From NCBI GenBank assembly GCA_015345905.1, contig JADDTR010000013.1:625411-689410 (forward strand): a stretch of 64,000 bases of DNA, in the 5' to 3' direction. This DNA comes from Aotearoamyces nothofagi (lineage: Eukaryota; Ascomycota; Leotiomycetes; Leotiales; Tympanidaceae). Numbering within the stretch: the stretch's first letter is position 1; each line of letters starts with the position of its first letter. Positions 50,665 to 63,678 of this stretch are shown one piece after another. Position numbers and translations under genes: made by a program. The notes under the pieces are model-generated. The model worked only from the letters and a program-made list of their open reading frames with translations, had not been told where the DNA came from and ran no database searches.

Positions 50665-52866
50665 ATGCAGGCCTGTGATTTATGCCGTAAGAAAAAGATC
50701 CGCTGTGAATTGATAGAAGATAGGGACTGTGCCGGGTGTGTCAAGCACAACACTCGCTGCGTTTTCACCCCGGTAAAGGCGAAGAAGGAGCCGCGGAGAC
50801 CACCTGGGTATGGCAGCTCTCCCCTGTCGACTGTCTAACTGACTTGGGTCATTTGCTAAAGAGTGAGTGACAGATATAAGCATGTTGAAGCATTGGAGAA
50901 GAGATTGAAGAGGATGGAAGCGATGTTGAATGGTCAAGGTGCTATCATGCAAGTTGCAGATGGCAACGACGACTGTAATGGCAGTGGCGATGTAGTAGCT
51001 ATCCACCAGGGTCAAGCCGGATTAGAAAGAAACATTCACAGGACACCAGAAGTGTCGTCTGCTCTCCCAGATCCATCGGCGTTGACACCGGGTCAAAAAC
51101 GGAAGCGAAGACAGAATCGTGAAAGCTCAATCCGGCCTATAACTGGCTCGTCTTCAACCACTGAGCGAGCTTCCGCCCCTATTTTTGAGGGTATGACACA
51201 TCTGGACTCCTTACTGATGCTTCATTTCAGCTGACGCTTCCTAGGACAGCAACCTGTCGAGAACGACGCCTCAACTCTCGCCCCATCCTGGCAACTCTCA
51301 CCATCCTCCAATATCTTCACCAAACGAACATTAAAGCCACTCCCCCCCAAAGCTGACGCCGCGCTTCTGATCCAAGAAGCAATTGATAGCTTTGTCACCA
51401 CCGCTCTCCCTCTCTTCGACCGCGCCTCTTTCCTACGTACCTTCGAGACGCGTTACGTCAACACCAACCCCCTCAATGAGCAGCCCGATGATATCGCCTG
51501 GTGGGCATGCCTCAACGTTATCTTCGCCCTCGCACATCGCTTCCGCGCCATGCGAACGCCGCAGAACAGCCACTCCAACGACATCCATGCATCGGGATAC
51601 CTCAAGAATGCGCTCGAGGTCGTCACAGAGCTCACGATGCTGGACTCAGGCTCAGGCTCAGTTTCAGAGCTGCTTGCCATCCAGGCCATCCTCGGCATCG
51701 CCATAGTGCTGCAAGGAACGCCGAATTCCCGGCCGTGTGGTGTGTTCGTGGGTATGGCGGTGAAAATGGCGCAGAGGATGGGACTGCATCAGGCGGATCG
51801 AGTCCATGGAGTGGGACGGGAGCTTAGCGTAGCTGAGAGAGAGGAGAGGAAGCGGGTATTTTGGGTGGCGTATGTGATGGATAACGACATCAGCTTTAGG
51901 AGTGGAGATCCGCCGGGGCAGGGGGATGATGATGTGGATACTCGGGTGCCTGAACCTGCTGACGCCGAATCAACTGAGTTGGATCCCCTGGGTAATGCTG
52001 CCATTGGTAGTGGTACCAATCTCTTCAATCTCCGCATCAGGCTAGCTGTCATACAAGGACGGATCTACAAGCGTCTCCTCTCGATGAAAGCCCTACGACA
52101 GTTGGGGTCCGAACGAGGAGATGCGGCGAAAGAGCTGTATACGACGCTTGAGACGTGGAAAGGGAGTGTCTTAGTTGAGTTCGACGGTGCTGCCTCCAAC
52201 GCCGGTATTACGCTCGGTGCTTCGAGATTACCGGCCGTGTTGCAAGCAGCTTTCCTGCATTTCCCCTATTTTCACGCCATGTACACCATCTCCCGCTCCC
52301 TCCGCTCCGGCCCTTACTCTCACTCCCCCTCACTCATCGCCTCCTCAGGGCCCTATGCAGATACAGCCATCTCTACCGCCACTCTCCAGGACCTCATCTC
52401 CACGACAGCCCTCTCCGCAGCGCGGCGAGCGATGAAAACCCTCCCGCTACTTCCGCTGGGGGATAATGCTTGTACGTGGCCCCTACTGCCCCACATTGTC
52501 ACAGCGTCGACAACTATCTTATCACATGCCATCTCAAATAATTCTTGCACGCCCAAGGATGAGGATGATTTGAAGCTTGTGGAGCCGGTGATGGGGCTCC
52601 TGGAGGTGTTGCGTGGTGGAGGAGAAGAGGTGCGGAGGATGGAGGGATCATTGAGGGGGTTATTGAGGGAGGCAAGAGGGAAGCTGGTGGCGGTGGATGG
52701 TATGGGTGGGCTGAGGGAGAGAGATGGAGAGGGCAGGGATAACGATGAGAATGAGGCTGGAGGTAGGGATGACAACGGGAGGAAGGGGATTACGAGTGTT
52801 AATGATTTTGTTGCGAGGATTGAACGAGATGCCGAGTGTTGGAATATTGATAAGTGGGTTATATAG
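50665..52866 (+). CDS. Zn2Cys6 transcription factor with fungal-specific domain (first of two)
   Basis: Exons 50665-50807, 50862-51190 and 51245-52866 give 697 residues. The DNA-binding cluster sits at the very start: CDLCRKKKIRC, then CAGCVKHNTRC, six Cys in the canonical spacing, followed by a basic linker and a short coiled coil (YKHVEALEKRLKRMEAML) for dimerisation. The middle-homology domain begins near residue 220 (AAWWACLNVIFALAHRFRA-type helix) and includes VFVGMAVKMAQRMGLHQADR and ERKRVFWVAYVMDNDIS. The final part is Gly/Asp/Arg-rich. Targets are unknown; the neighbouring SDR genes are plausible. Confidence 0.93.
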
Positions 52867-53435: not shown

Positions 53436-56400
53436 ATGGATACTGCGTCCGTGCCCCAACCCAAGCTGATCCGCTTTACCCCCAGCTACCAAGGCCCCTT
53501 TCGGCGGAAGCAGCGGACAGCTGCAGCGTAAGCTCACCCTCGTGTTGTCTCTAGTAGACAAGTGTATAAGAGTTGTAAATATGCTGAGCAGAGTTCTTGA
53601 GTAGTTGCCGGACTTGCCGCCAGCGGAAAACAAAATGTGATGGCGATCGGCCGATTTGTGGGACGTGTGCGGAGAGTAACCAGGTCTGCTTAGGATATGA
53701 AGAGGTTAAGAATTCACGGGCCAGCTTGAAGAAGAGAAATTCTCCTCCCCGTGATAATCAGGAGGCCCAGCCACGGCCGATGCATGTGGAGCAAGAAACT
53801 CAACGATTACAGGCACCTTTATCAGGTGATGAAGATATCTCTAGGAAAAAACGCCGTGCAACTCTAGAAGATGACGTGGATGGCCGCGATCATTGGGGCT
53901 CTTATCACGATGATGTACCGGATGTATCAGAAGATTACAGGCAGGCACCGAGCGGTAAGACCAGCAAAATTATCACCGGCAACTGTATTATGGCATCACG
54001 AAGAGCCCATGCTAATTATACCTGATAGATTCATTATTTATCGGCCAGATCAGCGCTCTTTCTATTCCGTATTTTCGCTATTTTGGACCCACGGCAATTG
54101 TCCCCGGATTTAAACAGATGGTTGTTCGAATCAAGGAGAATCGGCGCGGCACCGAAGCTTCTCTTGTACTTGGTAGTGAGTAATCAAATATCATATGCTT
54201 GATATTGATATTGATACTCCTTTAGGTCCAGGATCAAGCAATACGGGGTTATCTCCACTAGAAGCAAGGTCTGAATGTCTATCAACGATAGAATCTGCCT
54301 TCTATGACCCAACCGATCCGTCACCTATCCATGCCCTCATCGAACATCTAGTAGAAACCTTTTTCAAACACCTTGGATGCAATTTCCCATTTCTTCGTCA
54401 TGATCGCTTTATGCCATTATTACGGCAAAAAGCCGTAGATGCGATCTTAGTAGACGCAATCTGTGCCATCGCAGCTCGATTTTCTAAACATCCACTTTTG
54501 ACGGCATTGTATTCCACTTCAGCTGCTAGTCCAAACACTCTGAAGAGCCCGAAATCAGGTTATGGGCATGTTTTTGCCCAACGTGCGAAGTCGGCTGTTG
54601 TAGATTCTTTCCCATGTCCTACTCTTGCAAGTATACAAGCATGCCTGTTACTTGCCTATGAGGGGTTTGGTACAAACCAGGATAGCGCGTTATGGATGTT
54701 TTTGGGTTGTGCTATTCGAATGGCACAAGATCTTGGCTTGCAGAAGGTGGATGGAGTTAAGGGTACTGACAGTCAATCCCAAACTCCTAATGGTTATAAT
54801 ATCGACTCAATCACACCTAGACCCAGTGATAGAGGACAAAGCTTCCAGGATATATCTGACACGCTACCAACCTCGGCTCAAGACAAGTTTGAAACGGAAC
54901 GGATTGACACATTTTGGGCAGTGCTTATGCTGGACCGTGTTATATCTTCTGGTACAGGACGACCAGTTACTCTTCGTGACGAGGATATAGAACTCCCATT
55001 TCCACCCCATGCCATTGATCCGGTATCGGGTTGGCCACGTCCGTTCCCAGAACTCATTCGAATACTTCATCTCTACGGTAGGGTTACTGATCTTCTAAAT
55101 AATATACGCCATACAAAGGATGTGTTGCCGGATACCCGAAAACATCTTGATGAGATGGAGAACGACCTAACTAATATATACCAGAAACTCGACCCCAGAC
55201 TCACTTTCAACGTGGTGAATTTCCAACACTATGTTGAAGCCGGGCAAGGTGCGAACTTTGTATTGGTACATTTTTGGTTTCATACATTGATTATAATCCT
55301 GCATCAACCGACGCTATTACATTCATATACCGGAGCCGCCCAAGAATTGTTCTCAAACAATCGCGAGCTTTCCATGTCATCTGCAAAAACAATAGCGGAT
55401 ATCTTGGCATTCGCAGATCTTGTTGATTCAGATAGTTTTATCAGCAATCCATTCACAAGCCAGCCGATATATATCGCAGCCTGTGCATTTTTGATGGAGA
55501 CCGCCGTCCAGACAGCATCTCGACCCGTCTCAAGACCACCTTCGCCACCTGCTCGACCTAACGATATACGAAAGAATAGGACTGGACCTTCACTGGCTTC
55601 TATATTGGATCAGAGAAGATCTGAAAGACATAGTCTGCTAGCGTCCGTTGCGAAACAAAATTATCAGTGCTGCTACAAAGCGTTACAGCAGCTCGAAACA
55701 TATTGGTCAGGCACGAAATATATCCTTACAGCATTGGACCAAAAGGCCGAAGGAGTGTGGGATCCGGAAACATACACCTCTGAAGAAATGGAGAATGCTC
55801 AGCGGCATATTAATGCTGTCAAACCACCTCTTATCACTCGGCTGAAATCACTCGACACACCAGGTGAGACGGTGGCTGGAACGGATTCTGCTGAGGGAAA
55901 ACCATTGCACGATTCTTCGACAGCACTATCAGAAAATTCGGGGGTGGATGGTGATCAGATGTGGACGCTGAGCGGGAAGACGAATTCTCGGAATGCAAAC
56001 CTGACTTTTTTGTATAAGAACCCGTTTACGGAGACACGGCGTAAGTCTTCCAACATAGACGGGTCTTCTAATATAAATGGTAGTACTTCTGCTAATTTTG
56101 GAGCGGCTACGGGTGGGGATAATGGATTGTTGAGAGGGAATGAGAGTGCCGGAAGTGGTGTGATGGATGGACAATTTAAAAACCCAAGACCTCCTCAGGT
56201 TGTGCGTTCCATTCCGATTCCTGGAGCGCCTTTTCTGATGTATGAACCACAACCTACCACTACCACCACCACTGCCGCCCATCTCTTGAGCAGCGCTACT
56301 CAAACCCATCACCATTCCTTCGCACATTCAGATTCAAACTCAACACCTACTTTCTCGCAAGCCCATCAAACCAACCTACTGCAGAACTTCTCCCCAGAAT

Positions 56401-56666
56401 CCTTCATCCACGGTTCATATTATGAAAACGAAAACGACAATACCAACACCAGCGCCAACGCCAACGACATGCCACAGACCCAACCGCATTGGCAGAACAT
56501 GCTGGCACGTGACGCGAATGAGTATTTGGGACTGGGATCGTCGTACATGGGCGTGGTTGGCGATATGGTGATCGAGAGTCAGGATATCGACGTGGTGGAT
56601 ATTGGAGATGGGGTTCTGGGCGGGAGGGGCTTGGAGTGGCTGGATTGGATGGGTGGGGTTGGGTGA
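53436..56666 (+). CDS. Zn2Cys6 transcription factor with xylanolytic-regulator-type domain (second of two)
   Basis: Exons 53436-53527, 53605-53954, 54029-54172 and 54226-56666 give 1008 residues. A 31-residue basic leader precedes the zinc cluster CRTCRQRKTKC..CGTCAESNQVC, which is formed across the first intron. The conserved PYFRYFGPTAIVPGFKQMVV block comes from exon 3, spliced after SDSLFIGQIS. The fungal-specific domain follows from LIEHLVETFFKHLGCNFPFL through YGHVFAQRAK, ACLLLAYEGFG, ALWMFLGCAIRMAQDLGLQK and TFWAVLMLDRVISS. The C-terminal 300 residues are Asn/Ser/Thr-rich and disordered, likely an activation region. It resembles regulators of carbon-source genes. It lies 3.7 kb from the RpiB-like gene with an old retroelement between. 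Confidence 0.93.
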
Positions 56667-57736: not shown

Positions 57737-58080
57737 AGATGGATGGATTTATATTCTGACAACTTGAAAACTAGCCTGGGAAGCCTGGGAGTAATGGATG
57801 GATTATTGATTCTGCGAATAGAAGTGTTCTTATATATTTCTTTCTAGATAACACATTAATCCTATTGCAAGGGCCACAGAATCGGAGCCGGTCCGCACAG
57901 CGGTCCTTGAATTGCTTCGGCATTCGAGAGCGATGAGCCATACTTTAAAAAAATGTCTGCTAGGTAATATGTAAAGGCGAGGAGGGGCTTGATATTGTGG
58001 TGGTGATATGAGCGTATAGCGACGGAAGCCGGGATGGCGACGAGATCTGAAACGATGACGAGAGCTGGAATGATGGCGAC
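57737..58080. repeat. Diverged direct duplication, copy 2
   Basis: Partner of 57280-57580; the shared blocks are displaced by about 455-490 bases. It runs up to the edge of the retroelement fossil. Confidence 0.55.
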
Positions 58081-58600
58081 ATTTGCAGATAATAGGAAAG
58101 ACTTTGATTCCCAATCTGATTTCAGTGGGATCGTCATCCATTCCTCCTCTGGGAGGTCTACACAAGCGAGGTCTTGGAAAAGTGTTAGGAATTCTTCTAA
58201 CACCGCTGCTAGTGTTTGTCTTGTTGGAGCGGTTTTATATACTGTAGCATTGTTTGGTAGTCGTTCTTCCTCCGTTGTCTTCTTGTCTTCACTAGTCTGT
58301 TGTATAGGAATTTGTAGCCTGTGTATTGCTATATCGGCAAAATATACTTCTGTTTCTCTGTAGTTATTGTATTCGATATCTACTATTTTATCGAGGTATA
58401 GGTTCTGTTGTAGGGTCTGTATCCTGTCTATATCGTTTCTGGCTAGTACAGAGTTACAATCGGAACTTACCAGGTGTATATATAGTAAGACACTACATTT
58501 ATCTAGTTCGAAGATATATTCTCGATTGTTGGCTATATAGGCATGTCTTATTGGTAGTAGAGAAGATAATTGTAGTAGTAAGACCATTTCTTATATAAGT
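58080..58600 (-). mobile_element. Fragment of a Ty3/Gypsy LTR retrotransposon (fossil)
   Basis: The minus strand shows polyprotein-like sequence of the stretch between protease and reverse transcriptase of fungal Gypsy elements, with blocks such as VYKTAPTRQTLAAVLEEF and DLPEEEWMTIPLKSDWE. Reverse transcriptase, RNase H and integrase are missing on the downstream side, and no LTRs were identified. The neighbouring DNA to about 59500 is extremely AT-rich, as expected of a copy mutated by RIP, and may be the 5' part of the same element. It is an old, broken piece with several breaks. Confidence 0.6.
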
Positions 58601-60416
58601 ACTACCAGTATATAAACTGGTACTATTCTCCTCATTTTCATTTATATTGGAACAGTGATTATACAACTATTAATGTTTGCTATATTGTTGGTAAGAGAGA
58701 TTTCTATATCCTCTAGGACCAATATATCTGTTCTCAAGAGTATATTTATTTGTAGGTCATCAACTAGATATACTTCTTATATAATATATATAAAGACATC
58801 CTTGTTGTCTTTATCTATTCATTTAAAGTAGAGGTTTAGAACAGTATATATAGAGGAATTGTACTTTATAGAACCGATTTCTAATACCTGTACTAATATA
58901 GCCATCTTATATATCTCAATCTCTAGAGCGATTCTCTAGAGATATAATCGGTCAACCAGTATTATAGAGTATCTGGTGTCTAGATATATTGATTTAGGTT
59001 GCTTGTCTATATTGAGTTGTATATTTGTAGTAATATATCTATAGCTTCAAAAGCCGAAGCTGGTTCCAACATTGATCTAGGTATTATCAGCTCTCTATAT
59101 TGCTATATTGGAGTTTGCAGTTGCTGGTATTGAGGGGGTTCTTTGTTTATATTCATTGAAGCTGGCTATAAAATTGTTTAGTATTCCTTATATCTCTATA
59201 TATATATATATTCTATTATTAATTCCTATTCCAACATCTCTGGTATAGTACAAGCTGAAGAATTTTCTAGATCAGGGTAAGATAAAGGTCTTGAGTGACT
59301 ATTGAGAGGTGGTATATTAGAAGGTGGTCTATCGAGGGGTAGTAATAAGCTTTTGGATATAGGTGTAAATTATTCGACAGACGGGGTAATAAGCAACAAT
59401 GATATAGAGAAATTTAATAACTGTACTACAGCAGCTTTCAACACAGATTTTGACGTGGTCTACTATATAGGGAACTGGTCGATGGGAACTCTACTGCTCT
59501 AGGTAGATTGTAGTAGTGAACTTTCTCTTGGGGAGTCAGTAAGTATCACCTGGATTCAGCTTCGTGTCTCGGCGTTAATATTGTCTGTATAGAAGTGTCT
59601 ATAGTCGATAAAGTTACAGAGCTTCAATGCAAGGTCGATCGCAGCAGGATCAGATATGTAGGAAGTAGTAGTTCACCAAGGGCAAGAGGTGAAAGCGTAT
59701 ATAGTGCAAGTACGAAGATTACTGGGGTACGGGCAGGTACGGAGAGTTTTCCGTGGGTTTGGGCAGCGGAAGGGTGTCAGGTCAATTGAAAGTAAAAAGG
59801 TGCTTAAAGTCTGGTGCCGGGATCAATCGGCTGGTCGCTCTCTCGAGCTGGTGATGGCACGAATTGCTAGGAGAGGAGATCTCTTTAGAATTTAGTAGGA
59901 CGTCACTGGGGTCTTCATGTACTCTGCAGTCCTTTTGGAATAGGAAGCTTGTAGGTTTGCAAGTCTGCAAGGGAGTGCTATATATGTTATTATAGGATTA
60001 TGTAGATTTGGGTGAATGGGAATTATGGGAGTGAAGGGTGATATTATAGGTATGCTTTGAAAAATATAATAGGCGGAGGGAGGGGTTGGAGCTGTTGGAG
60101 CTGTTGGTTGGGTGAAGGGGTTGATTGATAGAAGCGTGGAAATGAAGATGAGAGTTATGATAGTAATAGGACTAGTATTTGTAATAGGACTAGCTATGAT
60201 AGCAGAATCTATAATAACGGTCTTTCCGTAGTTTATACTCTAGACCTACTGCTTTTGTCTAGTATAAACGTCGATGCTGTTATTAACCTGCTATTGTTTT
60301 CATCATCTCCAACCCTCCAAAGCCCAACACCAGCAGCAATTCTGCAGTAAGTAAACAAGCAGACCATCAAATCGTTTGATATATATATTCGCGCTCCACA
60401 CCCCAAACCCACCGCC
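58601..60416. other. AT-rich island, no intact gene
   Basis: From 58600 to about 59500 the sequence is dominated by A and T, with TA runs near 59195. From 59500 to 60100 the composition is more even, with no recognised frame. AATAGGACTAG is repeated at about 60159 and 60183. Much of this is probably retroelement debris. Confidence 0.5.
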
Positions 60417-60908
60417 TCACCCCACGATGCCCACCTTCTCCAGATCATATTTATGAATCGCATCCACCTTCTCCTTACTCTTACTGCCTTGATCGAACCT
60501 ATACTCCAGCCACTCCCCCACCAACCTCTTCGCCAGATCCAGCCCGATGACTCTCTGTCCCAGACACAGCACCTGCGCATCGTTGCTCAGAATCGCACGC
60601 TCGACGCTGTAGCTGTCATGCGCGGTTACGGCTCGCACGCCCTGTACTTTGTTCGCAGAGATGGCCACCCCGAGGCCCGTTCCGCAGATCAGGATCGCCC
60701 GGTCGGCCTCGCCGCTTGCGATGAGCTTGGCCGCTGACACGGCGTAGTGCGGGTAGGCCGTCTTGTCGTTGGGGTCGAGGGGCCCGACGTCGATTACACT
60801 GGCGACGAGGGGGTGTGTGGAGAGGAGGCTTGCGATGGAGGCTTTGTAGTCGTAGCCGGCGTCGTCGCCGCCGAGCACGATGCGGAGTGGAGTTTGGGCC
60901 TGTGCCAT
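60417..60908 (-). CDS. RpiB/LacA-type sugar-phosphate isomerase
   Basis: A 163-residue single-exon enzyme of the RpiB family, which interconverts aldose and ketose phosphates. It begins with [17 protein letters not shown], then [18 protein letters not shown], where the family has its substrate-binding Asp-Tyr-Pro-His part. [17 protein letters not shown] carries the catalytic Cys, and [31 protein letters not shown] is fully typical. In Brucella the relative EryI and in Yarrowia EYI2 act on erythrulose 4-phosphate. It starts 283 bases from the divergent TIM-like gene, so the pair probably shares a promoter. A ribose-5-phosphate isomerase role is less likely because fungi use the unrelated RpiA type for that. 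Confidence 0.93.
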
Positions 60909-61191
60909 GGTTATGAGGCACGGGGTTCGGATGTAGGGGCTGGGTATATTATGCGGATTACTGTGGTTTTGGACCTGGGAATTGGGGACTGCGGGCTATA
61001 TGTTGGCTTCAGAACTTCGATTCCTAATGGAGTAAACCCGAGTGCAGGATCCACTATGCTGACTGATGCAGCATTATTATCACAACAGTTCTTTCAGTTT
61101 GCTGCTTGTACTTTATTCATTGCTGATTTCAGGCGCGTTCTCGATTCTTCGTCTTCCTCTGCATTCTAGAGTTGCGACTTCATACTCTGCA
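60909..61191. promoter_or_regulatory. Shared promoter of RpiB-like and TIM-like genes
   Basis: The two isomerase genes are divergent with 283 bases between start codons. A TATTATGCGGATTA stretch and a CGG-rich part may hold Zn2Cys6 sites, but no clear CGG-N-CCG pair is evident to me. Confidence 0.5.
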
Positions 61192-61932
61192 ATGGCTTCC
61201 CAGACCTCCACCAGACGCATGGTAGGCGTGAGTCTCAAGATGTACTTCACCTACGCTCAGACTCTGCAATATGTCTCCAACATCGTCCATCTAGGCGAGA
61301 AATACCCCAATATCGACATTTTTATCATCCCCGACCTCCTCTCCATCTCCAGCGTCAGCGCAGCTCTTTCAAAACACCACTCGGCAATCATTCTTGGAGC
61401 CCAAGACTGTTTCTGGGAGGACCACGGCGCCTACACTGGCGAAGCGTCACCGGCAGTCTTGAAAGCTCTCGACTGCGCCCTCGTCGAACTCGGACATGCA
61501 GAACGACGCCGACTCTTCTCCGAGACGGATTCGCATGTCCAGAAGAAGGCAGCCGCAGCCTCGCGCAACGGCATGACGCCGCTTGTCTGTATTGGCGAGG
61601 CGACGCGCGGGACGGTGACTGACGCGGTGGAGGAATGCAAGGGCCAGGTCCTCTCCATTCTAGAAACGACAGGCGGCGAGGTTGTGTTTGCGTACGAGCC
61701 GGTCTGGGCGATTGGGGCTGCGGAGCCGGCGGCGGCTGAATACGTGGTGGCGGTGACCAAGGAACTGAGGAGGATCTGTGGCGAGCGGCCGGTCAGAATC
61801 ATCTACGGCGGCAGTGCCGGCCCTGGGACATGGCAGGGAATGAGAGAAGGCGTCGATGGGTTGTTCCTAGGGCGCTTTGCCCACGACGTGACGGATTTCG
61901 AAAGAGTGATCGCGGAGGTGGCTCGGGGATGA
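61192..61932 (+). CDS. Triosephosphate isomerase-family enzyme, probable erythrulose-1-phosphate isomerase
   Basis: A 246-residue single-exon TIM barrel. Catalytic residues are in place: Lys in VGVSLKMYF (here SLK in place of the glycolytic NWK), His in VELGHAERRRLF, Glu in FAYEPVWAIG, and the phosphate loop IIYGGSAGPGTW. It differs from glycolytic TIM by replacement of the NxK asparagine, by the SLKMYF start and by LFLGRFAHDV at the end, features of the second-copy TIM group that includes EryH and Yarrowia EYI1. The ATG at 61192 is chosen because upstream codons in frame encode no family sequence. The neighbours (RpiB type and SDR) support a role in C4 sugar-phosphate metabolism. Confidence 0.9.
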   Translation: MASQTSTRRMVGVSLKMYFTYAQTLQYVSNIVHLGEKYPNIDIFIIPDLLSISSVSAALSKHHSAIILGAQDCFWEDHGAYTGEASPAVLKALDCALVELGHAERRRLFSETDSHVQKKAAAASRNGMTPLVCIGEATRGTVTDAVEECKGQVLSILETTGGEVVFAYEPVWAIGAAEPAAAEYVVAVTKELRRICGERPVRIIYGGSAGPGTWQGMREGVDGLFLGRFAHDVTDFERVIAEVARG

Positions 61933-62622
61933 TGGCGGGCGGACGTGCAGCCTCGAAGGGCTCGGAAGACTCGAGAGACTCGATATCCATGTTTTAGAAT
62001 GCCACTAGAGATGCAGAGAGAATTCAGACTCGCCGTCGGGTTACCTGATGGGGAAATATCCGCGTGGAAATCCCGTCGTCGCGGTCGTGGTTCGATGCGG
62101 GGATTCCGCCCCGTCTCCACTCCCCCGCACAACCTTAAATACCCGAGTCTTCGAGTCTCGAGTCTCGAGTCCCGGGTCCTGAGATGTCCCCGCGGCCACG
62201 TCAGGACGTGCACCGGATTGCCCAATGCGGGCATCCGGCTGTCAACTTCTGCACCACAGCTCTGCCGCCACGCGTGCTTCTGCTGGCGACGCCCGTCGAA
62301 TCCACGATCCGGACGCAATTGCTCGATTTGGAGAGTCGCGGGAATGGGCTGGACAGATGCATGGGATGGCTTCAGACCCGACTGCAACAGGCGTTTTTGC
62401 CGGAAGACTCGGTTTTGCGAGGGCGCCGACTTCTGATATGGCCGCTTCTCATGCACGTGCTATCTTGGAGGGGGGGTAATAAGTATGAACCGGCCTGGAA
62501 TTTCTTGGTTGTAGGAGACACTTCTTGAGCCATCGCCTCTCACGGAAACTGCTTGATTGCCATCTCTCCCATTTTAACGGTTCTCGCTCTTTCGAAAAGT
62601 CGCTTTCTGAACTCGGTCAAGT
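61933..62622. other. Intergenic region, no gene seen
   Basis: About 690 bases. GAGTCTCGAGTCTCGAGTC-type repeats at 62148-62175 form a small XhoI-like palindrome array. GC-rich frames on both strands have no domain. Confidence 0.5.
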
Positions 62623-63678
62623 ATGCCTGTTGCTGTAAATGGACAGAATGGCTCGGCGCCAAATAGTACAGCTCCAGCAGCGCCGTCTCTAGACGCCCTT
62701 CGATCAACGCCATCCTTCAGTCTGGACGGCAAAGTCATTCTGGTATCTGGAGCAGGTCGCGGTTTAGGGTTAACTCAAGCCGAAGCTCTCCTCGAAGCCG
62801 GTGCCACTGGTTCGTCTCAATCCGCACTCTATCTCTACCCTCCTAGGCCTCACTGACCTCCCCCGCAGTCTACGCCTTGGACCGACTTGGTACGCCTGAT
62901 TTCCCGCCGCAGCCAAAACCCCAGTTCTAGTATTAATTCCTTCGCAGAAGAACCATGCCCCGATTTTCTGCGTGTCCAAAAACGCGCCGTAGCAGACCTC
63001 AACACGGCCCTCCATTACCGCCGCATCGATATCCGCGAGGTCGACGAGCTGAACAGAATCATCGAGGATATCGCGACCGCCCATGGCCGGCTCGATGGGC
63101 TGATCGCTGCCGCTGGCATCCAGCAGGAGACGCCGGCGCTCGAGTATACCGCCAAGGATGCGAATGCCATGTTCGAGATTAACATCACGGGCTCCTTCAT
63201 GACGGCCCAAGCTGCAGCCAAGCAGATGATCCGGTTTGGAAACGGGGGCAGCATCGTAATGATTGCGAGCATGAGCGGGACCATCGCCAACCGAGTAAGT
63301 CCTCCTCTCCCATTTCTATCTACCCACCCGGCGCCGCCTCCGAACCGCGACCTGACTGCTACACAGGGACTTCTCTGCGCGCCATACAACGCCTCGAAAG
63401 CGGGCGTGCTCCAGCTCGGACGCAACCTCGCCAGCGAATGGGGCGTGCACGGCATCCGCGTCAACACCATCTCGCCCGGCTACATCGTGACAAGCATGGT
63501 CGAGGCCCTCTTCGAGCAATACCCCGAACGCAGATCAGAATGGCCGACGCAGAACATGCTGGGCAGACTGAGCAAGGCGGAGGATTACAAGGGCGCAGCG
63601 GTCTTCCTGATCAGCGACGCCAGCTCGTTCATGACGGGCGCCGATTTGAGGATCGATGGCGGGCACGCGGCTTGGTAG
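62623..63678 (+). CDS. Short-chain dehydrogenase of the polyol dehydrogenase / sorbose reductase type
   Basis: Exons 62623-62809, 62869-62889 (21 bases), 62948-63294 and 63367-63678 give 288 residues. The start is a 33-residue Ala/Ser/Pro-rich tail. Then come SLDGKVILVSGAGRGLGLTQA with the cofactor glycines, AAAGIQQETPALEYTAKDAN, the catalytic Ser in VMIASMSGTIANR, YNASK with Tyr and Lys, and RVNTISPGYIVTSMVE. It ends MTGADLRIDGGHAAW. This pattern matches the fungal group that oxidises or reduces polyols such as D-arabinitol, mannitol and sorbose. Standing next to two C4-type sugar-phosphate isomerases, oxidation of erythritol to erythrulose is an attractive guess but is not shown by the sequence. 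Confidence 0.92.

What the first reader, a model, noticed from the sequence alone, without database searches (positions are those of the whole stretch)
60417..63678. Partial erythritol (C4 polyol) catabolic cluster
An RpiB-type and a second-copy TIM-type isomerase are divergent from a 283-base promoter, and a polyol-type SDR follows. These two isomerase families together make up the erythrulose-phosphate branch in Brucella (EryI, EryH) and in Yarrowia (EYI2, EYI1). Finding both side by side with a polyol dehydrogenase in a filamentous ascomycete points to the same pathway. The erythrulose kinase is not in view and may lie to the right.
Basis: partly seen in the sequence, partly recalled or inferred. 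Interest (0 to 1): 0.75.

Follow-up and report, generated by a model that had tools for sequence, protein, structure and literature searches.

The report
Fungal tetrulose-phosphate isomerase gene pair
A fungus carries, back to back, two enzyme genes whose bacterial relatives often sit in gene groups for four-carbon sugars, so it can probably turn a four-carbon sugar phosphate into fuel, though whether it starts from erythritol is not shown.

Summary
The TIM groups with an EryH-type enzyme and actinobacterial erythrulose-locus TIMs, apart from presumed glycolytic TIMs (100/95), with Ser where the 65 resolved TIMs outside that group have Asn. The RpiB has the unusual phosphate pocket of a Coccidioides RpiB structure whose authors suspected a shorter substrate; the 14 closest actinobacterial relatives (53-68%) share it, and 10 of 14 lie near a dihydroxyacetone-kinase-family gene. 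Best explanation: L-erythrulose-1-P to D-erythrulose-4-P to D-erythrose-4-P. The RpiB tree nests the fungal proteins inside Actinobacteria, suggesting horizontal transfer. Not shown: erythritol as substrate, the kinase (none found in the window, which ends 322 bp after the SDR), the SDR's role, induction. A new member of a known kind; its main value is a testable substrate for a fungal RpiB of solved structure.

The parts
60417..60908 (-). RpiB-family gene, proposed D-erythrulose-4-phosphate / D-erythrose-4-phosphate isomerase, 163 aa, intronless
   Evidence: PF02502; TIGR02133 189.5 bits, cut-off 168.2 met; six pocket residues identical to the Coccidioides structure; inside an actinobacterial clade
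60909..61191 (.). 283-bp divergent intergenic region, presumed shared promoter
   Evidence: coordinates; with the simple patterns used only CGG-N4-CGG at 60921 and no TATA box were found
61192..61932 (+). TIM-family gene, proposed L-erythrulose-1-phosphate isomerase, 246 aa, intronless
   Evidence: PF00121; nearest solved chains 3s6d, then 11ef 'L-erythrulose-1-phosphate isomerase'; C4-type group split off at 100/95; Ser at the Asn11 position
62623..63678 (+). classical SDR, 288 aa, three introns; possible polyol dehydrogenase, substrate unknown; membership in the pathway is inference from position
   Evidence: gene model; PF13561; GAGRGLG, YALDR (Asp suggests NAD, recalled rule), IASMS and YNASK motifs; none of the 25 NCBIfam models shown, of 227, is met at cut-off

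Best explanation
The divergent pair encodes the two isomerases that carry tetrulose phosphate into the pentose phosphate pathway: the TIM-type enzyme turns L-erythrulose-1-phosphate into D-erythrulose-4-phosphate, and the RpiB-type enzyme turns that into D-erythrose-4-phosphate. A dihydroxyacetone-kinase-family enzyme coded outside the window would make the L-erythrulose-1-phosphate. The neighbouring SDR may make L-erythrulose from a C4 polyol such as erythritol or threitol. Shown here by sequence: family, active-site type, phylogenetic placement, and kinase association of relatives. Inferred: the reactions themselves, the kinase, the SDR's part, co-regulation from the shared 283 bp.
For: TIM: 14 C4-type rows (chosen by locus context or PDB name) and 28 others (yeast TPI1 and 27 of the 64 Asn-type loci, presumed glycolytic) separate at 100/95. 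At the Asn11 position, of 90 sequences 13 have Ser (window, 3s6d, 11ef, 10 loci), 1 Gly (L121), 65 Asn and 11 were not aligned; all 10 Ser loci hold an RpiB with the RSSK or RSSN pocket. RpiB: pocket columns Arg-Ser-Ser-Lys in the window, in 3qd5 and in 14 of 14 close actinobacterial relatives, Arg-Ser-Ser-Asn in two Mesorhizobium loci (of which L008 meets the curated D-erythrulose-4-phosphate isomerase model, 250.7 against 240 bits), His-His-Arg in the ordinary type; 20 His-His-Arg rows form one side of a branch, 100/98. Edwards et al. (PMC3212906) suspected shorter substrates because of these residues. Context: 14 RpiB matches of 53% or more in 12 of 296 actinobacterial genomes: Dak-family gene in the fetched stretch of 10 of 14, TIM in 7 of 14; among 20 weaker controls Dak 3 of 20, TIM 0 of 20. 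The 5 best TIM matches in those genomes all lie 14 bp to 5.7 kb from one of the 14 RpiBs. One of the 14 and one of the 5 is the Rhodococcus genome on which the search was centred. Yarrowia uses the same pair for erythritol.
Against: No kinase in view, no expression data, no genome. The window RpiB misses the D-erythrulose-4-phosphate isomerase model NF051858 (145.8 against 240 bits), and the TIM misses NF000722 (190.9 against 293), which the Mesorhizobium L008 TIM meets (412.7). TIM next to RpiB also occurs without C4 features in 3 Sutcliffiella/Bacillus horikoshii loci (Asn11 TIM, His-His-Arg pocket). The RSSK pocket is wider than the kinase association: it is in 10 of 20 controls, of which 3 have a Dak gene nearby, and, with the last column unaligned in one, in 6 of 8 further weaker matches that I had left out of the context count. 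3 of the 14 close relatives have Gly for the catalytic Cys.
Confidence: 0.8

Rival explanations
1. A narrower form of the best explanation: the locus is specifically an erythritol utilisation cluster like Yarrowia EUF1-EYL2-EYK1-EYL1-EYD1, with kinase and regulator just outside the window and the SDR as erythritol dehydrogenase.
For: Same two isomerase types. T. reesei, a filamentous ascomycete, consumes erythritol (PMC11210129 passage). The SDR has an Asp where this suggests NAD use (rule recalled).
Against: The SDR meets no model cut-off among those shown. No kinase found in 64 kb. Between the pair and the nearest Fungal_trans gene (54195-56666) lies an AT-rich, RIP-like stretch.
Confidence: 0.45
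2. Another narrower form: the pair takes L-erythrulose from a source other than erythritol, for example threitol, a sugar acid, or a branched sugar such as D-apiose through apionate, and the SDR belongs to that route or to none.
For: In locus L114 the Dak, RpiB and TIM genes lie near an MFS protein whose best model is the D-galactonate transporter (below cut-off), a hydroxyacyl-CoA-dehydrogenase-like protein and a protein that looks xylose-isomerase-like by eye (no NCBIfam match at 1e-20); L120 has the same MFS type (below cut-off) and L113 looks like L114 by eye. A route from apionate to L-erythrulose is recalled, not read here (search 50 listed nothing on it).
Against: None of those accessory genes was recognised in the window. 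L001 and L115, with SDRs of the GolD/DthD family above cut-off, look like polyol loci.
Confidence: 0.35
3. A glycolytic TIM paralogue and an ordinary pentose phosphate RpiB that are neighbours by chance.
For: Both belong to families with housekeeping members. TIM-RpiB neighbours without C4 features exist in 3 Bacillaceae loci.
Against: The TIM lies apart from the presumed glycolytic rows and has Ser for Asn11; the RpiB lacks the His-His-Arg pocket.
Confidence: 0.07

Closest known systems
Yarrowia lipolytica erythritol utilisation cluster (EUF1, EYL2, EYK1, EYL1/EYI1, EYD1)
   Same: One TIM-type and one RpiB-type isomerase gene in one locus; a divergent promoter in the cluster.
   Different: There EYK1 and EYL1 are the divergent pair (438 bp); here the two isomerases are. 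No kinase found and no EYD1 orthologue shown in the window. Sequences were not compared.
   Same: RpiB 64-68% identical (L001, L113, L114), TIM 46-48% (L001, L114); same four pocket residues.
   Different: Order Dak-RpiB-TIM on one strand in L112, L114 and L120; here divergent and no kinase in view.
Rhizobial EryH/EryI (Mesorhizobium L008, L009; PDB 11ef)
   Same: TIM 36-37% (11ef, L008) and RpiB 43-44% (L008, L009) identical; Ser at Asn11; Arg-Ser-Ser in the pocket.
   Different: Separate branches in both trees; pocket Asn instead of Lys; curated cut-offs not met by the window proteins.
Coccidioides immitis RpiB (3QD5, 3SDW, 3SGW) and the putative TIM 3s6d
   Same: Closest solved relatives: RpiB 66%, TIM 43% identical by blastp; six pocket residues identical.
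   Different: The genomic context of those genes was not available here; the species of 3s6d is recalled.

Membership tests
L-erythrulose-1-phosphate isomerase (EryH / LerI / EYL2 kind) | groups with EryH-type rows and apart from presumed glycolytic TIM | tested here: met
   100/95
L-erythrulose-1-phosphate isomerase (EryH / LerI / EYL2 kind) | Ser (not Asn) at the TIM Asn11 position, with Lys, His, Glu kept (feature found here, not a published rule) | tested here: met
Rhizobial EryH group | score above NF000722, the NCBIfam model met by the Mesorhizobium L008 TIM | tested here: not met
   190.9 against 293 bits; L008 412.7. So not filed in the rhizobial group; L113 and L114 TIMs also miss it (179.0, 181.1)
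L-erythrulose-1-phosphate isomerase (EryH / LerI / EYL2 kind) | enzyme activity | not testable with these tools
   none
D-erythrulose-4-phosphate isomerase, rhizobial EryI (NF051858) | NF051858 cut-off | tested here: not met
   145.8 against 240 bits
Actinobacterial-type RpiB (TIGR02133) of erythrulose-type loci | TIGR02133 cut-off | tested here: met
   189.5 against 168.2 bits; L001 187.6 and L113 199.1
Actinobacterial-type RpiB (TIGR02133) of erythrulose-type loci | Cys base plus Arg-Ser-Ser-Lys pocket | tested here: met
   note 3 of the 14 close relatives (L119, L122, L123) have Gly for Cys
Ordinary ribose-5-phosphate isomerase B | His-His-Arg pocket and its clade | tested here: not met
Glycolytic triosephosphate isomerase | Asn11 and grouping with glycolytic TIM | tested here: not met
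Yarrowia-type erythritol cluster | erythrulose (Dak-family) kinase in the cluster | tested here: inconclusive
   none found in 64 kb but the window ends 322 bp after the SDR
Yarrowia-type erythritol cluster | erythritol dehydrogenase EYD1 | tested here: inconclusive
Yarrowia-type erythritol cluster | induction by erythritol | not testable with these tools
   none
GolD/DthD dehydrogenase (SDR) | NF005309 cut-off | tested here: not met
   164.4 against 286 bits

The most novel reading that the evidence does not exclude
Filamentous ascomycetes took both isomerases from one actinobacterial erythrulose operon and rearranged them as a divergent pair; the pair is a general entry point for L-erythrulose from several sources, and it gives the open substrate of the Coccidioides RpiB of known structure: D-erythrulose-4-phosphate / D-erythrose-4-phosphate.
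Probability: 0.35. Interest if true: 0.6.

Novelty: new member of a known kind. Interest (0 to 1): 0.42.

Why it matters
It extends the tetrulose-phosphate route, described in Brucella, mycobacteria and Yarrowia, to what is probably a filamentous ascomycete, and gives two residue signatures that help to tell tetrulose isomerases from housekeeping TIM and RpiB. Such genes may be misannotated as ribose-5-phosphate and triose-phosphate isomerases. It also proposes a directly testable substrate for a fungal RpiB whose crystal structure left that open in 2011.

Tried and rejected
Glycolytic TIM paralogue: rejected by the tree and the Asn11 position. Ordinary RpiB: rejected by pocket and tree. Kinase elsewhere in the window: none found with one bacterial Dak query. 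Pfam on 10 chosen ORFs of the window gave two Fungal_trans proteins, an UNC-93/MFS-like protein, GFO/IDH/MocA, GH3, PrpF, Amdase, S28 and inositol phosphatase domains, and one ORF without a match; I see no tie to this pathway, and intron-split genes were not modelled. Promoter motifs: nothing convincing. SDR as a DthD orthologue: cut-off not met. TIM beside RpiB as sufficient proof: rejected because 3 Bacillaceae loci have it without the signatures. My first reading, that the TIM simply falls under glycolytic cut-offs, was dropped: its best model, NF000722, is one that the Mesorhizobium EryH-type TIM meets. RpiB tree: replaced, which has more phyla and leaves out two long rows and two near-duplicates; the nesting in Actinobacteria was weaker (fork of 12 rows 81/78). 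Searching the host genome: not possible. Papers: the listings of searches (14 of 14 shown; 2 of 2; 15 of 76; 10 of 39; 15 of 22) showed me none that assigns this gene pair in filamentous fungi; I saw titles and abstract openings, and passages of some; the library lacks most subscription journals. Structure prediction was not used.

Rows dropped before counts: the 30 short stretches L081-L110 were left out as duplicates; 8 of them (L094, L095, L101-L104, L106, L108) were not duplicates of a later locus. One search scores all 30: of the 8, five have RSSK, one RSS with the last column unaligned, two His-His-Arg, and none has Dak or TIM within its 1.5-kb flanks. The 20 controls were taken in rank order but passing over matches on contigs known or suspected to be short.
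Full report
What is there. The two isomerase genes have no introns and diverge from 283 bp. tblastn found no Dak kinase, second TIM or second RpiB in the 64 kb. No genome is held for this window, so the claim of a second TIM copy and the search for the kinase could not be finished.

TIM. Against solved structures the best match is 3s6d (putative TIM, 196.9 bits), then 11ef, deposited as L-erythrulose-1-phosphate isomerase (133.5 bits), then chains named TIM from 123.5 bits down. A scan of the bacterial and archaeal genome collection found Rhodococcus wratislaviensis (L001, 46%), Kocuria (L002, 41%), Erysipelotrichaceae (L003, 40%), then others including Mesorhizobium (L008 and L009, 37 and 38%) (the 80 best of 307 kept; the scan works from exact short patterns and missed the closer L114, found later). 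RpiB relatives lie in 8 of those 80 loci, at 65% in L001 and 61% in L002. In a tree of 42 TIMs, 14 C4-type rows and 28 others (27 loci chosen from the 64 with Asn, plus yeast TPI1; 'glycolytic' is my label for them), the two sets are split by a branch with 100/95 support, and the window TIM pairs with 3s6d at 91/93. At the Asn before the catalytic Lys, of 90 sequences the window, 3s6d, 11ef and 10 loci have Ser, L121 has Gly, 65 including yeast have Asn, and 11 were not aligned there. That Ser makes room for a longer substrate is inference.

RpiB. The closest solved relatives are 3qd5 and 3sdw from Coccidioides immitis (66% identity to 3qd5). The structure paper (PMC3212906; parts 1 and 2 of 4 read) reports that of the phosphate-contacting residues only Lys148 is positively charged, with Asp17, Ser109 and Ser145 elsewhere and Ser109 where the ring-opening His usually is; it suspects shorter substrates and notes a separate RpiA. 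The six positions checked (17, 76, 105, 109, 145, 148) are identical in the window protein. The 14 actinobacterial relatives of 53% identity or more share Arg-Ser-Ser-Lys, though 3 of them have Gly for Cys76; L008 and L009 have Arg-Ser-Ser-Asn; the ordinary type has His-His-Arg. L008 meets the curated D-erythrulose-4-phosphate isomerase model (250.7 against 240 bits; L009 was not scanned), which ties the Arg-Ser-Ser pocket to a named C4 enzyme. The window protein does not meet that model but meets TIGR02133, as do L001 and L113.

Context of relatives. In 296 actinobacterial genomes, 251 had an RpiB match, and 14 matches in 12 genomes reached 53% identity; the next is at 44% and 121 bits, and later ones reach at most 50% (among the matches listed). 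In the stretches held around these 14 (up to 20 kb), a Dak-family gene was found in 10, a TIM-family gene in 7 and both in 6; 3 of the 4 without Dak lie on contigs of 6-9 kb. Of 20 weaker controls, 3 had Dak and none had TIM. The 3 Dak cases are among the 10 controls with the RSSK pocket; the other 10 controls had none (this split was made after seeing the data). Of 8 further weaker matches left out of that comparison, 6 have the RSS pocket and none has Dak or TIM within 1.5 kb, so the pocket is wider than the kinase association. In the same genomes the 5 best TIM matches lie 14, 25, 62, 3,599 and 5,661 bp from one of the 14 RpiBs; the Rhodococcus genome, one of these, is the one the search was centred on. 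The Rhodococcus locus holds a GolD/DthD-family SDR above cut-off (392.8 against 286), a Dak-family kinase above cut-off (PRK14479), ABC transporter genes (by eye), the TIM and the RpiB. GolD/DthD as a D-threitol-type enzyme is recalled.

Origin. RpiB matches in 249 genomes of the phylum of L008's genome and 245 of the phylum of L003's reached at most 51% and 46%, against 68% in Actinobacteria. In a tree of 63 RpiBs (4 rows left out: two long, two near-duplicates) the two fungal proteins pair at 99/91 and lie inside a set of 12 with 10 actinobacterial rows (96/92), itself inside 17 with 15 (100/100). An earlier tree of 43 rows gave the same nesting with weaker support. This favours transfer from Actinobacteria to fungi for RpiB. 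For TIM the join with Rhodococcus is weak (82/31), so joint transfer is a hypothesis. Only three phyla were sampled for RpiB, and only two fungal sequences were available.

What is not shown. The SDR has the classical motifs and an Asp after the second strand, which by a recalled rule suggests NAD, but meets no curated model among those shown. Locus L114 has a transporter nearest to the D-galactonate type and other enzymes, so the pair marks use of L-erythrulose, not of erythritol in particular. In Yarrowia the five cluster genes respond to erythritol and erythrulose (PMC9835291 passages), and deletion of the RpiB-type gene impairs erythritol use (PMC5992420, part 1 of 6 and passages). T. reesei consumes erythritol (PMC11210129 passages).

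Literature seen: PMC5992420 (part 1 of 6 and passages), PMC3212906 (parts 1-2 of 4), passages only of PMC9835291, PMC12780249, PMC11210129, PMC12731236, PMC10935855 and PMC8532513. The M. smegmatis threitol work and the apionate pathway are recalled; the former is also cited in PMC12780249.

Verdict. A real pair of genes that most likely encode tetrulose-phosphate isomerases (confidence 0.8), with erythritol as the feedstock unproven (0.45). It is a new member of a known kind.

Noticed in passing
window 58001-60000: AT-rich stretch (GC 0.36-0.40) with TpA/ApT 1.12-1.20 against 0.78 for the whole window, between the RpiB gene and the next gene to the left: looks like a RIP-degraded repeat relic; the 241-aa ORF at 57862-58587 has no Pfam match.
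   Followed up: partly
window 51550-52866 and 54195-56666: Two Fungal_trans-domain proteins, the nearer one about 3.7 kb from the RpiB gene across the AT-rich stretch; either could be a regulator, nothing shown.
   Followed up: no
L017 6075-9221 (similar TIM-RpiB pair in L011, L030): Bacillaceae locus with a TIM carrying an N-terminal extension directly before an RpiB of ordinary pocket type; the preceding ORFs look like a microcompartment aldehyde dehydrogenase and shell protein by eye (recalled).
   Followed up: partly
L119, L122, L123: Three actinobacterial RpiB relatives (54%) have the Arg-Ser-Ser-Lys pocket but Gly in place of the catalytic Cys, and neither Dak nor TIM in the stretches held: a further variant of unknown substrate.
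   Followed up: no
L114 7800-15853 (L113 5147-12843 similar by eye): Dak, RpiB, TIM, a xylose-isomerase-like protein (by eye; no NCBIfam match at 1e-20), a hydroxyacyl-CoA-dehydrogenase-like protein, an SDR and an MFS protein nearest to the D-galactonate transporter: possibly a sugar-acid route into L-erythrulose.
   Followed up: partly
window 61066-61191: In-frame upstream ATG would add a 42-residue, partly hydrophobic N-terminus to the TIM; transcript data are needed to choose the start.
   Followed up: no
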